Shown here: piece after piece, positions 47,361 to 63,876 of the stretch
Position numbering within the stretch: the stretch's first letter is position 1
Layout of the letters: the number at the start of each line of letters is the position of its first letter
Origin: Ancylomarina salipaludis
GTDB taxonomy: Bacteria; Bacteroidota; Bacteroidia; Bacteroidales; Marinifilaceae
Direction: 5' to 3'
Assembly (NCBI RefSeq): GCF_004122035.1
Contig: NZ_SAXA01000007.1
Span: 169,566-233,565, forward strand
DNA length: 64,000 bases
Notes under the pieces: generated by a model
The model's input: only the letters and a program-made list of their open reading frames with translations
Told to the model about the DNA's origin: nothing
The model's database searches: none
Position numbers and translations under genes: made by a program

Positions 47361-47380
47361 TACTGGTAGGAACTGGTAGG
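47361..47380. promoter_or_regulatory. Galactose-type operator upstream of the second SusCD unit
   Basis: TACTGGTAGGAACTGGTAGG, 18 of 20 bases identical to the galK operator (22455-22474), also preceded by CA in both. It ends 8 bp before the -7 box and occupies the -33 position, suggesting activation by the regulator rather than repression. Confidence 0.7.
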
Positions 47381-47388
47381 TATTTTTA

Positions 47389-47396
47389 TATATTTG
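47389..47396 (+). promoter_or_regulatory. -7 box of the second SusCD unit
   Basis: TATATTTG, perfect for TAnnTTTG, without a TTTG at the -33 position. It is identical in sequence and operator spacing to the -7 box of the GntR-type gene. The transcript would have an untranslated leader of about 375 bases. Confidence 0.6.
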
Positions 47397-47486
47397 TATC
47401 AAACAAATTAAAGATAGCTACTATTAACAAATTCAGTTTTGGTAATTATGATTAGACTAGCAAAATTTTACAAACAGCACAACAGA

Positions 47487-47516
47487 TCATACAAAGGTTT
47501 GTATGAATGCTGGATT
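47487..47516. repeat. Covarying hairpin repeat, copy 1
   Basis: A 7-bp stem TCATACA/TGTATGA with a 6-base loop, followed by the conserved tail ATGCTGGAT. It matches the copy at 53789-53818 at 25 of 30 bases; all five differences are transitions and one pair (A-T versus G-C in the stem) is compensatory. It lies in the untranslated leader of susC. The rest of 47266-47779 holds no gene. Confidence 0.6.
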
Positions 47517-47779
47517 TACTAGACCAGCAGCTCTCTTATCTCTATAATTCACCACACTAGAGATCTCTCACAACATCCTAAATCAGGATGAAAACACCTA
47601 TTAAGAAAACCGTACAAAATTGAGATCGATTGTTAATCACGATCGGCTCAACAGCAAAATATAATTGCAAAAAAAGGCAGAGAGAGCTACCAACAATCCC
47701 TGCCAAACATTAAACAGGCTAAGTTGTTTCCATCGCAAAAAAGAACGCAACTGCCATTAACTTTAACGAACCTAAATTT

Positions 47780-60630: not shown

Positions 60631-60670
60631 ACCATTCATCAGAAACAATTAATGATTAGCAATTACGTAC

Positions 60671-60690
60671 AGACGCACAATTGTGCGTCT
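60671..60690. repeat. Perfect 20-bp palindrome
   Basis: AGACGCACAATTGTGCGTCT, ten perfect pairs with no loop, in the 102-bp gap before the beta-galactosidase gene. It is GC-richer than its surroundings. Short palindromes of this GACGCA...TGCGTC type are dispersed in other Bacteroidota by my recollection. It could act as a terminator-like hairpin or a dispersed repeat. Confidence 0.6.
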
Positions 60691-60732
60691 CAACCTAAGA
60701 ACTAAAACTTACAATCGATAACGAACCATAAA

Positions 60733-63700
60733 ATGAGAACAACTTTAACGCTAGTGCTTATTCTCTTCTACCAGGGCATTTTTGCTCAAGAGAACGCAGC
60801 TGTCAACGATTGGGAAAACCCTCAGATCATTGGCATTAATAAAGAAAAACCGAGAGCATCCTATTTTGCCTACCGCAACTTGAACAATGCTCTTAAAAAC
60901 TCAAAAGAGAATTCAGAATATTATATCAATCTGAACGGCACATGGAAATTCAACTGGGTTCGCAAACCAGCTGATCGACCTGTGGATTTTTACAAAACCA
61001 ATTACGATATCTCAGACTGGAAAGACATTAAGGTTCCCGGTCATTGGGAATTGCAAGGCTATGGTGTACCTATTTATACCGATGTCTCCTACCCTTTTCC
61101 AAACAACGAACCTTATATTCCGCACGATTACAATCCGGTTGGATCTTACAAAAGAAACTTTACCATCCCCGAAAATTGGAAAGACGAAGAAATCTATATC
61201 CACTTTGGTGGGGTTCGCTCTGCCATGTATTTGTGGGTAAATGGCAAAAAGGTTGGCTACAGTCAGGGCAGTAAAACTCCTGCTGAATTTGATCTTAGCC
61301 CGTATATTAAAATCGGTGTCAACCAACTTGCCGTCGAGATCTATCGTTTTAGCGATGGCTCTTATCTCGAAGATCAGGACTATTGGAAAGTAAGTGGTTT
61401 CGAAAGGGATGTTTACCTGTATGCCCGTCCGAAGACGCATATCCGAGACTTCTTTGCCCATGCCAGTTTGGATGAAACCTACACCAATGGTCAGTTTAAA
61501 CTGGAGGTGGAGCTTAATAAGCTGGACAACAAAAAAGAACTACGATATGTGGAAATAAAGTTATACGATAAAAATAAAGTCGTATTTGAAGCTCAAGAAA
61601 AAAAACAAATCAACAAGGGCAGTAATCAATTTGCCTTTGCAGCTGAAATTCCCAATGTTCGCAAATGGTCAGCAGAAACACCTGAACTTTACAACTTGCA
61701 GATCAGCCTGAAAGGTTCGAATAAAAAAGACATTGAGGTCATCCGCCGCAAGATTGGTTTCCGCACAAGCGAAATCAAAAATGGCCTGCTTCAAATCAAT
61801 GGGGTGCCTGTTGTTATCAGAGGGGTTAACCGTCACGAGCACGATGCCGACCATGGTCGTGTAATTACAGAAGAATCGATGATCCGAGACATCGAGTTAA
61901 TGAAGCAATTCAATATCAATGCCGTAAGAAATTCACATTATCCCAACCGTGAACGCTGGTACGAACTCTGCGACCAATACGGCTTGTACCTGGTGGACGA
62001 AGCCAATATTGAGGCACACGGTTGCGATCCTTACAATAAGGAAAAGACCCTAGCTAATAAACCCAATTGGAAAAAAGCATTTCTGGACAGAACCCAATCG
62101 ATGTTTCAGCGCAGTAAAAACCATGCATCCGTCATCATTTGGTCATTGGGAAACGAAACAGGTCGAGGCCAAAATTTTCACACCACTTATGATTGGCTTA
62201 AAAAGCATGACAGCTCTCGTCCTGTTCAATCAGAAGATTCCGGTCTGGAATCGAACACTGATATCTTTTGTCCGATGTACGATCGCATGTGGGAAATGAT
62301 GAAATATGCCGAAAAAGTACAAACACGTCCACTGATACAATGTGAGTATGCCCATGCCATGGGAAACAGTGTAGGGAATCTGAAAGACTACTGGGATTTG
62401 ATTTACAAACACAGACAGCTGCAAGGCGGTTTCATTTGGGATTGGGTAGATCAAACTTTCAGAAAAGTAACGGAAAAAGGCGATACCATTTTTGCCTATG
62501 GTGGCGATATGGGCATCTATAAGATACAAAACGATTCGAATTTCTGTGCCAACGGTTTGGTCAGCAGCGACAGGAAAATCCACCCTCACATTTGGGAGGT
62601 AAAGAAAGTCTACCAGCCGATTGCTTTCGAGAAAATCGATCACTCTTCCAATCAGTTTAAGATCATCAACCGTTACGATTTTACCGATTTGGATGCTTTT
62701 GATTTCAGTTGGACCCTTAAGGAAGATGCGACAATTATTGCAGCGGGTAAATTAGAACCTATAGCCCTAAAGGCACATCAGGAAAAAACAATTACTATTC
62801 CTTATCCTGCAATAGAACCTAAATCTGGATGTGAGTATTTCCTGGAACTTAAAGCCCATAGCAAAAAAGAGCAGCCACTTGTCCCAAAAGGACATTTGAT
62901 AGCCTGGGAACAGTTCCAATTGCCCATATCAAAGGCAATCGAGGCGAAAGGGGTAAAGACACTTGGCAAGGTGAAACTAAAAGACAGCAAAGACGAATTA
63001 ATTTTAACAGCCAAAGCCATTCAGATTCGCTTCTCAAAGAAAACAGGAAGCTTAAATTCATACCAAATTAACGGCAAGGAATTGATGGTTCAGGACTTAA
63101 AACCCTTCTTTTGGAGAGCGGTAACAGATAATGATTTGGGGAATGGCATGCCAGCGAAGTGTCAGGTTTGGAAAGAAGCCGGAGCCAATTCCCAAGTCGT
63201 ATCATTCCAGAGCAAGCAACTGAGCAATCAGCTGATAGAAGTAATTGTTTCCCTTAATCTACCAAAGGTTTCGAGCAAATATAAAACCCGCTACCTGATT
63301 TACGGAAATGGTGACATAAAGGTTCAAAACAGCTACCATCCTGAAGCCAATACCATTCCCATGCTGCCACGCCTTGGCATGCAAATGCAGTTGCCAAAGG
63401 CTTTCAACCAGATCGAATGGTTTGGTCGTGGTCCGCAGGAGAACATGAGCGACAGAAAAACAGGGTATCCGGTGGGACAGTATAAAAGCAGCGTAGCCGA
63501 GCAATATCACCCTTATGTACGCCCACAGGAAACCGGGAACAAAACCGACCTGCGATGGATGGCTCTTACGAATCAGGAGTCTTTAGGTTTAATGGTGATT
63601 GCAGAATCAGAACTAGCCGGCTCAGCCTTACCTTTCGACTACAAGGAACTCTATCACTCAGGAAAGGGAAACCCTCAGAAACATGGCAATGAAATTAAGA

Positions 63701-63876
63701 CAGGTGAAGTAATCAGCTGGCAGATTGACTACAAGCAAATGGGTGTAGGTGGCGATAACTCATGGGGAGCCCCCGTACACTCAGAATATTCGATTCCGGC
63801 ACAAGATTACAGCTATGAGTTTATTCTTCGTCCTATAAATGGTGAAAAGGATTTAAACGAATTGAGTAAATTATGA
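60733..63876 (+). CDS. GH2 beta-galactosidase, LacZ-like
   Basis: 1047 residues with signal peptide MRTTLTLVLILFYQGIFAQ. Domains: sugar-binding jelly roll (about 65-230; LWVNGKKVGYSQGSKTPAEFDLSPYI), immunoglobulin-like (235-345), TIM barrel (about 350-640; RGVNRHEHDADHGRVITEE, AVRNSHYPNRERWYELCDQYGLYLVDEANIEAHG) and C-terminal small-chain domain. The acid/base is Glu475 (SLGNETG) and the nucleophile Glu538 (IQCEYAHAMGN). It releases terminal beta-galactose, which the gal cluster could use. The final TGA is the first three bases of the following IS-like end. Confidence 0.93.
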   Translation: MRTTLTLVLILFYQGIFAQENAAVNDWENPQIIGINKEKPRASYFAYRNLNNALKNSKENSEYYINLNGTWKFNWVRKPADRPVDFYKTNYDISDWKDIKVPGHWELQGYGVPIYTDVSYPFPNNEPYIPHDYNPVGSYKRNFTIPENWKDEEIYIHFGGVRSAMYLWVNGKKVGYSQGSKTPAEFDLSPYIKIGVNQLAVEIYRFSDGSYLEDQDYWKVSGFERDVYLYARPKTHIRDFFAHASLDETYTNGQFKLEVELNKLDNKKELRYVEIKLYDKNKVVFEAQEKKQINKGSNQFAFAAEIPNVRKWSAETPELYNLQISLKGSNKKDIEVIRRKIGFRTSEIKNGLLQINGVPVVIRGVNRHEHDADHGRVITEESMIRDIELMKQFNINAVRNSHYPNRERWYELCDQYGLYLVDEANIEAHGCDPYNKEKTLANKPNWKKAFLDRTQSMFQRSKNHASVIIWSLGNETGRGQNFHTTYDWLKKHDSSRPVQSEDSGLESNTDIFCPMYDRMWEMMKYAEKVQTRPLIQCEYAHAMGNSVGNLKDYWDLIYKHRQLQGGFIWDWVDQTFRKVTEKGDTIFAYGGDMGIYKIQNDSNFCANGLVSSDRKIHPHIWEVKKVYQPIAFEKIDHSSNQFKIINRYDFTDLDAFDFSWTLKEDATIIAAGKLEPIALKAHQEKTITIPYPAIEPKSGCEYFLELKAHSKKEQPLVPKGHLIAWEQFQLPISKAIEAKGVKTLGKVKLKDSKDELILTAKAIQIRFSKKTGSLNSYQINGKELMVQDLKPFFWRAVTDNDLGNGMPAKCQVWKEAGANSQVVSFQSKQLSNQLIEVIVSLNLPKVSSKYKTRYLIYGNGDIKVQNSYHPEANTIPMLPRLGMQMQLPKAFNQIEWFGRGPQENMSDRKTGYPVGQYKSSVAEQYHPYVRPQETGNKTDLRWMALTNQESLGLMVIAESELAGSALPFDYKELYHSGKGNPQKHGNEIKTGEVISWQIDYKQMGVGGDNSWGAPVHSEYSIPAQDYSYEFILRPINGEKDLNELSKL

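What the first reader, a model, noticed from the sequence alone, without database searches (positions are those of the whole stretch)
47361..63876. Candidate uptake and breakdown locus for collagen-like glycopeptides
Seen in order: gal-type operator, SusC, SusD, LysO lysine exporter, Xaa-Pro aminopeptidase, pyrroline-2-carboxylate reductase-type enzyme, trans-3-hydroxyproline dehydratase-type enzyme (Cys/Thr), S37 prolyl aminopeptidase, C69 dipeptidase, GH2 beta-galactosidase, all on the plus strand. Known: collagen is rich in proline, contains 3-hydroxyproline and lysine, and carries beta-linked galactose on hydroxylysine. Inference: a peptide counterpart of a polysaccharide utilization locus, in which import, end-trimming, hydroxyproline salvage, lysine efflux and galactose removal act together. 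Terminators split it into several units, so it is a cluster, not one operon.
Basis: partly seen in the sequence, partly recalled or inferred. Interest (0 to 1): 0.85.

Follow-up and report, generated by a model that had tools for sequence, protein, structure and literature searches.

The report
Galactose-linked collagen glycopeptide-eating gene cluster
A likely marine bacterium carries a conserved gene cluster, headed by the same DNA motif as its galactose genes, that is predicted to import sugar-coated collagen fragments and likely strip them to glucose, galactose, proline and lysine-type residues.

Summary
All named genes lie on the plus strand at 47.8-63.9 kb, and the 'gal-type operator' is real: its exact pattern occurs twice in the 4.15 Mb genome, before galactokinase and before this SusC. 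It precedes this SusC in 10 of 11 genomes examined. M24B-reductase-dehydratase-S37-C69 is collinear in 12 of 12 relatives' loci read (five genera). Together these fit uptake and stripping of peptides carrying Glc-Gal-hydroxylysine, i.e. collagen. Enzyme specificities are untested. Against: no M9 collagenase here, three curated cut-offs missed, LysO nearly universal in the family, modules also occur apart, one relative (G026) has SusCD without the operator. New variant of a known kind: a PUL for glycopeptides.

The parts
47361..47379 (+). operator TACTGGTAGGAACTGGTAG; the only other exact pattern match in this genome is at the galK promoter
47389..47396 (+). TATATTTG, Bacteroidetes-type -7 box (motif recalled), 9-11 b after the operator in 10 of 10 loci that have the operator
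47448..47522 (+). conserved short leader ORF (MIRLAKFYKQHNRSYKGLYECWIY)
   Evidence: a counterpart in 10 of 10 leaders examined
47780..50965 (+). SusC-type TonB-dependent transporter
   Evidence: TIGR04056 911.9 bits vs cut-off 368
50982..52514 (+). SusD-type lipoprotein
   Evidence: PF07980, PF14322
52545..52578 (+). terminator-like hairpin after SusD
52645..52953 (+). LysO N-terminal half
   Evidence: PF03956
53015..53620 (+). LysO main part (likely ATG start); only full-length PF03956 match in the genome
53996..55375 (+). M24B Xaa-Pro aminopeptidase
   Evidence: PF00557, PF05195
55451..56410 (+). OCD/mu-crystallin-type reductase, likely pyrroline-2-carboxylate reductase (likely ATG start; the listed ORF begins at 55376)
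   Evidence: PF02423; NCBIfam reductase models hit below cut-off
56452..57492 (+). [quoted passage not shown]
   Evidence: PF05544, Cys102/Thr266
57629..58939 (+). S37 aminopeptidase, lipoprotein-like N-terminus
   Evidence: PF05576, GISKG at 160
58999..60630 (+). C69 dipeptidase
   Evidence: PF03577
60733..63876 (+). GH2 LacZ-type beta-galactosidase
   Evidence: NF052611 1137 bits vs cut-off 999
63877..64000 (+). start of an IS3-like element at which the contig ends; transposase-like ORF from 63941
   Evidence: weak scores, short pieces; the GH63/YgjK-like gene is L033 6642-8693 on contig C3
22455..22473 (+). second operator copy, in front of galK
22575..23597 (-). GntR regulator with sugar-binding domain, predicted to bind both operators
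   Evidence: PF00392, PF13377
18484..22477 (-). galactose genes: galactokinase, GalT, sodium symporter

Best explanation
This conserved gene cluster, whose operator is otherwise found only at the galactose operon in this genome, likely imports collagen-type glycopeptides and breaks them down to sugars and amino acids. Predicted steps: SusCD takes fragments into the periplasm; the GH63/YgjK-like enzyme would remove the outer alpha-linked glucose and GH2 the beta-galactose of Glc-Gal-hydroxylysine; S37, C69 (and, in most Marinifilaceae loci read, a DPP-IV-like S9 enzyme) would cut peptides to short pieces; inside the cell M24B would release the residue in front of proline; the Cys/Thr dehydratase and the OCD-type reductase would turn trans-3-hydroxyproline into proline, while HypD, encoded elsewhere, would serve 4-hydroxyproline; LysO would expel surplus lysine and possibly hydroxylysine. 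Released galactose is predicted to lift repression by the GntR regulator and so open the promoter. Shown: the genes, their order and conservation, the shared operator, HypD and the GH63-like gene in the genome. Inferred: every substrate, the regulator-operator pairing and the export step.
For: Family assignments. t3HypDH homologues of at least 71% identity in 13 of 56 family genomes, 5 genera. Order M24B-P2CR-t3HypDH-S37-C69 in 12 of 12 relatives' loci; LysO before it in 10 of 11 testable, GH2 after it in 10 of 11 testable, SusD in 9 of 11. GH63/YgjK-like gene within 0.7 kb after GH2 in nine relatives (G001-G004, G035, G036, G038-G040); own copy 88% identical to the G004 protein, at a contig end; G004 protein against PDB YgjK E 7.5e-95 with the Asp501 and Glu727 equivalents kept, also in the own copy. 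Operator: 28 places in 19 of 22 chosen genomes, 10 before this SusC, 15 at the gal operon, 3 elsewhere; reversed control pattern 1. HypD over its curated cut-off, 1289 vs 1100; homologues in 13 of 13 t3HypDH genomes versus 24 of 43 others, p 0.002, the model cut-off met in 9 of 9 relatives' copies tested. HypD within 8 kb of t3HypDH in 5 of 34 named loci outside Marinifilaceae. SusC-SusD-LysO-GH2-GH63 collinear in 6 of 24 out-of-family loci, four families. A candidate hydroxylysine kinase/phospho-lyase fusion beside HypD, S37 and GH63 in L170 and near t3HypDH in L081.
Against: No M9 collagenase match in the own genome; 1 of 56 family genomes has one. t3HypDH, the reductase and the GH63 protein miss NCBIfam equivalog cut-offs (365/540, 175/266, 468/625). 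LysO is present in 33 of 34 family genomes tested, with or without the locus, so its place may be capture of a household gene. The modules also occur apart: SusCD-LysO-GH2-GH63 without hydroxyproline genes (L043, L183), hydroxyproline genes without glycosidases (L067 and others). G026 has this SusCD (88%, 82%) and LysO but no operator in the 3.6 kb upstream even at 3 mismatches, and no close t3HypDH. The S9 gene is absent in the window. SusCD differs strongly in two relatives (G002 about half identical; M. breve 39% and 27%). Counting only HypD homologues of at least 63% identity, the link with t3HypDH weakens to 8 of 13 versus 16 of 43, p 0.11, and kinship is not corrected for. GH63 specificity for Glc-alpha-1,2-Gal rests on recalled work on YgjK.
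Confidence: 0.68

Rival explanations
1. Two unrelated modules share one place: a galactoside PUL (SusCD, GH2, GH63) under the galactose regulator, and a general proline-peptide salvage set that came to lie inside it. The sugar substrate would be an ordinary glucosyl-galactoside, not a glycopeptide.
For: Both modules occur separately (L043, L183, L159, L164, L175 against L067, L068, L088). GH2-GH63 sits with GntR and GalK in L162 and L163.
Against: The mixed order, with the peptide genes between LysO and GH2, is kept in four genera (in the fifth, G024, GH2, LysO and SusCD are not there). L170, in another family, has HypD, S37 and GH63 close together with no GH2 or SusCD hit. LysO in the galactoside module has no evident sugar role (knowledge).
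Confidence: 0.2
2. The cargo is another hydroxyproline-rich glycoprotein, such as plant or algal wall protein with galactose on hydroxyproline or serine.
For: Galactose-type operator and 4-hydroxyproline dehydratase fit such proteins too.
Against: The cluster holds a likely 3-hydroxyproline dehydratase and an alpha-glucosidase-type gene beside the galactosidase, and no arabinose enzyme among its genes; these match collagen's Glc-Gal-hydroxylysine (PMC8626586 and PMC11012932 passages) and its 3-hydroxyproline (PMC4364671 passage).
Confidence: 0.08
3. Ordinary neighbourhood of peptide-using genes without a shared substrate; conservation reflects shared ancestry only.
For: Most synteny evidence is within one family.
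Against: SusCD, the S9 gene and the HTCS vary while the core order stays; the SusCD-LysO-GH2-GH63 unit recurs in four other families; the operator is shared with a distant operon.
Confidence: 0.04

Closest known systems
Polysaccharide utilization loci (Sus-type PUL, Bacteroidota)
   Same: SusC/SusD pair, lipoprotein-type hydrolases, glycosidases, sugar-linked regulation.
   Different: Most enzymes are peptidases and imino-acid enzymes; the predicted cargo is a glycopeptide.
RagAB peptide importer of Porphyromonas gingivalis (PMC11817032, passages read)
   Same: SusCD-like pump whose cargo is peptide.
   Different: Here the pump is linked to galactosidase, glucosidase, hydroxyproline enzymes and a galactose operator.
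T3LHyp pathway of Thermococcus litoralis and bacteria (PMC4364671 and PMC4113996, passages read)
   Same: Cys/Thr proline-racemase-family dehydratase plus pyrroline-2-carboxylate reductase, in one cluster in T. litoralis.
   Different: No outer-membrane pump or glycosidases in the passages read.
PGGHG, animal GH65 collagen glucosidase (PMC8626586, passages read)
   Same: Removes glucose from Glc-alpha-1,2-Gal-hydroxylysine, the reaction predicted here.
   Different: Different glycosidase family (GH65 against GH63/YgjK-like).
HypD of Clostridioides difficile and Bacteroides (PMC7815924, passages read)
   Same: Hydroxyproline use by gut bacteria; the HypD model is met here.
   Different: No glycopeptide import locus in the passages read.
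Bifidobacterium HypBA2 system for plant hydroxyproline-rich glycoproteins (PMC7263609, abstract start and passages)
   Same: Import and degradation of glycans from a hydroxyproline-rich glycoprotein.
   Different: ABC import, arabinose, plant protein; no hydroxyproline breakdown in the parts seen.

Membership tests
Sus-type PUL | adjacent SusC and SusD genes | tested here: met
Sus-type PUL | linked glycoside hydrolases | tested here: met
   GH2 in window; GH63-like next in nine relatives and at a contig end here
Sus-type PUL | glycan cargo | not testable with these tools
   needs binding assays
trans-3-hydroxyproline dehydratase (Type I) | Cys/Thr catalytic pair in place of Cys/Cys | tested here: met
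   Cys102, Thr266; rule from PMC4364671
trans-3-hydroxyproline dehydratase (Type I) | NCBIfam equivalog cut-off NF045511 (540 bits) | tested here: not met
   365 bits; so called 'likely', not filed as equivalog
trans-3-hydroxyproline dehydratase (Type I) | linked pyrroline-2-carboxylate reductase | tested here: inconclusive
   OCD-type gene directly upstream, but reductase equivalog cut-offs not met (e.g. NF005603 175 vs 266)
GH63 / YgjK | YgjK_N and MGH1-like catalytic domains with Asp501/Glu727 equivalents | tested here: met
   domains on the G004 and G024 proteins, residues; Glu727 as base recalled
GH63 / YgjK | NCBIfam alpha-glucosidase PRK10137 cut-off (625 bits) | tested here: not met
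   468 bits for the own protein
GH2 LacZ-type beta-galactosidase | NF052611 cut-off (999 bits) | tested here: met
   1137 bits
HypD | NF043068 cut-off (1100 bits) and adjacent activase | tested here: met
   1289 bits; radical-SAM activase-type ORF L034 5015-5842 beside it (by eye)
LysO | Pfam PF03956 cut-off in both ORFs | tested here: met
   31.5 and 223.9 bits vs 23.8; transport of lysine or hydroxylysine not testable
Galactose regulon of the GntR regulator | same operator before galK and SusC, kept in relatives | tested here: met
   exception G026; binding itself not tested

The most novel reading that the evidence does not exclude
This is the first glycopeptide utilization locus for collagen: a SusCD pump that takes up Glc-Gal-hydroxylysine peptides, a GH63 and GH2 pair that strips the collagen disaccharide, dedicated 3- and 4-hydroxyproline salvage, hydroxylysine export through LysO, and induction by galactose freed from the cargo. 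Its SusCD-LysO-GH2-GH63 core recurs across Bacteroidales families, so bacterial collagen deglycosylation would be widespread and unrecognised.
Probability: 0.5. Interest if true: 0.85.

Novelty: new variant of a known kind. Interest (0 to 1): 0.68.

Why it matters
Collagen is a very abundant animal protein, and I found no description of bacterial uptake of its hydroxylysine-linked disaccharide peptides in the listings. If true, this gives a testable gene set, a candidate natural substrate for YgjK-like GH63 enzymes (whose natural substrate was only assumed, PMC9061262 passage), and a marker for collagen-using Bacteroidota. It would also show a SusCD locus built around a glycopeptide and switched by its sugar part.

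Tried and rejected
HTCS 43171-47265 as the cluster's regulator: kept beside SusC in 5 of 5 genomes of the genus, no hit upstream of SusC in 5 of 5 Marinifilum-type genomes in the stretches fetched (L046-L050); it lies between two divergent SusCD sets and more likely belongs to the left one.

4-hydroxyproline epimerase reading of the racemase-family gene: set aside on Thr266 and because the genome has one member of the family.

T. litoralis 6r76, the closest solved chain, is labelled proline racemase; its aligned sequence also has Thr. PMC4364671 passages describe a Cys-Cys racemase and a separate dehydratase in that organism, so the label was not taken as evidence of racemase function. That 6r76 is the T. 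litoralis protein is recalled.

Rfam for the leader: no match at E up to 1. Sigma-70 scan: 47 found against 44.3 expected, uninformative.

Paper searches: all ten used. Searches ('utilization loc' + hydroxylysine + collagen + Bacteroid; YgjK + galactopyranose): 0 papers. One search was spoiled because 'susc' matched 'susceptible'. Only open-licence PMC papers are held, so 'not in print' is not proven.

Fusion gene against LysO: the kinase/lyase query matches 3 of 80 chosen genomes, none with LysO over the cut-off (51 of 80 have it), p 0.04; post hoc, not random genomes, and two of the three matches cover the lyase half only. Weak.

Odds left unchanged.
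Full report
WHAT IS THERE. The window is the last 64 kb of contig C53 of a 4.15 Mb genome. Its genus-mate G001 has a contig of the same length (61332) as one named Ancylomarina euxinus, so the organism is placed in Ancylomarina (inference). From 47780 to 63876 the plus strand carries SusC, SusD, a split LysO, an M24B Xaa-Pro aminopeptidase, an OCD/mu-crystallin-type reductase, a proline-racemase-family enzyme, S37, C69 and a GH2 LacZ-type galactosidase. 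The racemase-family enzyme has Cys102 and Thr266; PMC4364671 (passages) assigns the Cys-Thr pair to trans-3-hydroxyproline dehydratases. It scores 365 bits on the NCBIfam dehydratase model against a cut-off of 540, so the name stays 'likely'. N-termini read by eye suggest that SusD, S37 and the GH63-like protein are lipoproteins, C69 and GH2 are exported, and M24B, reductase and dehydratase are cytosolic.

THE OPERATOR. The pattern TACTRGTNNGNACTGGTAG has two exact matches in the whole genome: this one, and one at 22455-22473 just before galactokinase, beside a GntR regulator with a sugar-binding domain; a third match has two mismatches. Expected exact matches by base composition: about 0.003. 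With up to one mismatch, 22 chosen Marinifilaceae genomes give 28 places in 19 genomes; the reversed control pattern gives 1. By context 10 lie before this SusC, 15 at the gal operon and 3 elsewhere (G026, G049, G050, between a membrane-protein-like gene and a sulfatase-like gene, by eye; unexplained). The SusC promoter was reached in 11 genomes: 10 have the site (own included), each with a TATATTTG box 9-11 bases on; G026 has SusC, SusD and LysO at 82-88% but no site in 3.6 kb upstream even at 3 mismatches. Of seven genus-g10 genomes tested without a close t3HypDH, five have one site, at the gal operon, G026 has one elsewhere and G028 none. That the GntR protein binds the site is inference.

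CONSERVATION. t3HypDH homologues of at least 71% occur in 13 of 56 family genomes, in five genera; two more genomes have 35% homologues. In the 12 relatives' loci read M24B-P2CR-t3HypDH-S37-C69 is collinear in 12 of 12; LysO lies before it in 10 of 11 testable, GH2 after it in 10 of 11 testable, SusD in 9 of 11. Of 13 named Marinifilaceae loci (L055-L066, L076) 10 carry a DPP-IV-like S9 gene between reductase and dehydratase; the window and L018 do not. G026, G049 and G050 keep LysO, M24B, S37, GH2 and GH63 without a close t3HypDH; G026 has an alpha-N-acetylglucosaminidase (NAGLU) gene between LysO and M24B. In M. breve (L064) SusC and SusD are only 39% and 27% identical.

THE MISSING GENE. 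The window ends in what looks like an IS3-type element: the first 20 residues of an HTH_Tnp_1-like ORF at 63941, with an rve_3-like tail at the end of contig C3 (weak scores because the pieces are short). Just inside C3 lies a 674-residue GH63/YgjK-like gene. In nine relatives it follows GH2 within 0.7 kb; in G024 it follows C69. The G004 protein matches E. coli YgjK at E 7.5e-95; the equivalents of Asp501 and Glu727 are kept in it and in the own copy (Asp501 as acid in PMC7263609, Glu727 recalled). PMC7263609 (passages) shows YgjK with glucose and with galactose of lactose at subsite +1. PMC9061262 (passage) says its natural substrate was assumed to be an alpha-glucoside other than nigerose. 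That its glycosynthase product was Glc-alpha-1,2-Gal is recalled. This is the collagen disaccharide (PMC8626586 passage; section 6.5 of PMC11012932, whose abstract prints a beta link instead).

HYDROXYPROLINE AND HYDROXYLYSINE LINKS. The genome also encodes HypD (1289 bits against cut-off 1100) with an activase-type ORF and a DPP-IV-like gene beside it. HypD homologues occur in 13 of 13 genomes with close t3HypDH and in 24 of 43 others (p 0.002, not corrected for kinship); 9 of 9 relatives' copies tested, seven of them from the 53% group, pass the HypD cut-off. With homologues of at least 63% only, it is 8 of 13 against 16 of 43, p 0.11. In 5 of 34 named loci outside Marinifilaceae, several of them short, HypD lies within 8 kb of t3HypDH (L067, L068, L069, L073, L088). 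In L170, from another family, HypD, a fused APH kinase/class-III aminotransferase-fold protein, S37, a SnoaL-like ORF and the GH63-like gene are consecutive. The fusion's best solved relative is an ethanolamine-phosphate phospho-lyase (6tor; human origin recalled), a paralogue of 5-phosphohydroxylysine phospho-lyase (recalled). L081, an Acidobacteria bin, has the same fusion (44%) near reductase and t3HypDH. Among the 186 sequence records then held only these two had it; the own genome has no match.

THE RECURRENT CORE. YgjK-like proteins (E up to 1e-100) occur in 25 of 392 sampled Bacteroidales genomes, the own included (order name inferred). Of the 24 others, 6 loci (four families) read SusC-SusD-LysO-GH2-YgjK, 3 read SusCD-GH2-YgjK, 2 (one genus) have GH2-YgjK with GntR and GalK, 1 is L170; the other 12 lack such a set (L160 and L180 have GH2, L161 a C69 gene, L165 weak SusCD hits). 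Of the 15 of 24 with LysO over the cut-off, 6 have it in the YgjK locus; at an assumed 1% chance per genome this is about 5e-9, or 2e-6 counting four of ten families. Against this, LysO is in 33 of 34 family genomes tested.

MECHANISM AND DOUBT. The simplest account that joins an alpha-glucosidase, a beta-galactosidase, a galactose operator, proline-directed peptidases, 3- and 4-hydroxyproline enzymes and a lysine exporter is use of collagen-type glycopeptides. Doubts: no M9 collagenase here (1 of 56 in the family), so the organism would rely on other proteases or on fragments made by others; equivalog cut-offs missed; modules also occur apart; all substrates inferred.

Noticed in passing
47448-47522 and 47676-47718; also L103, L105-L108, L115, L116, L120, L126, L127: The SusC leader (nearly 400 bases) holds a conserved short ORF ending KGLYECWIY (genus of the window) or HRGLFECLIC (Marinifilum type) in 10 of 10 leaders, and AGCUACCAAC in a predicted hairpin; no Rfam match for the window's leader. 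Possibly an attenuator.
   Followed up: partly
33368-42751: Divergent second SusCD set (36936-41764) with two DUF3472/DUF5077 proteins and an F5/8C protein, next to the HTCS regulator 43171-47265.
   Followed up: partly
L170 4271-6607; L081 2688-4982: Fused APH kinase/class-III aminotransferase-fold gene beside hydroxyproline genes in two phyla; candidate bacterial hydroxylysine kinase/phospho-lyase.
   Followed up: partly
L109, L121, L130: A near-copy of the gal operator (TACTGGTAGGTAATGGTAG) lies before a sulfatase-like gene (by eye) in G026, G049, G050; role unexplained.
   Followed up: no
L039 1371-6567: In G026 an alpha-N-acetylglucosaminidase gene and a 924-residue protein with GH31/melibiase-like hits below cut-off sit between LysO and M24B.
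   Followed up: partly
31723-33180: ORF that by eye joins a multihaem cytochrome-like N-terminus (CxxCH motifs) to a formylglycine-enzyme-like C-terminus.
   Followed up: no
14075-14629: Three tandem tRNA-Arg(acg) genes.
   Followed up: no
L073: Prolixibacteraceae bacterium JC049, a record not marked as a MAG, has HypD directly before the reductase and t3HypDH: a candidate for bench work.
   Followed up: no
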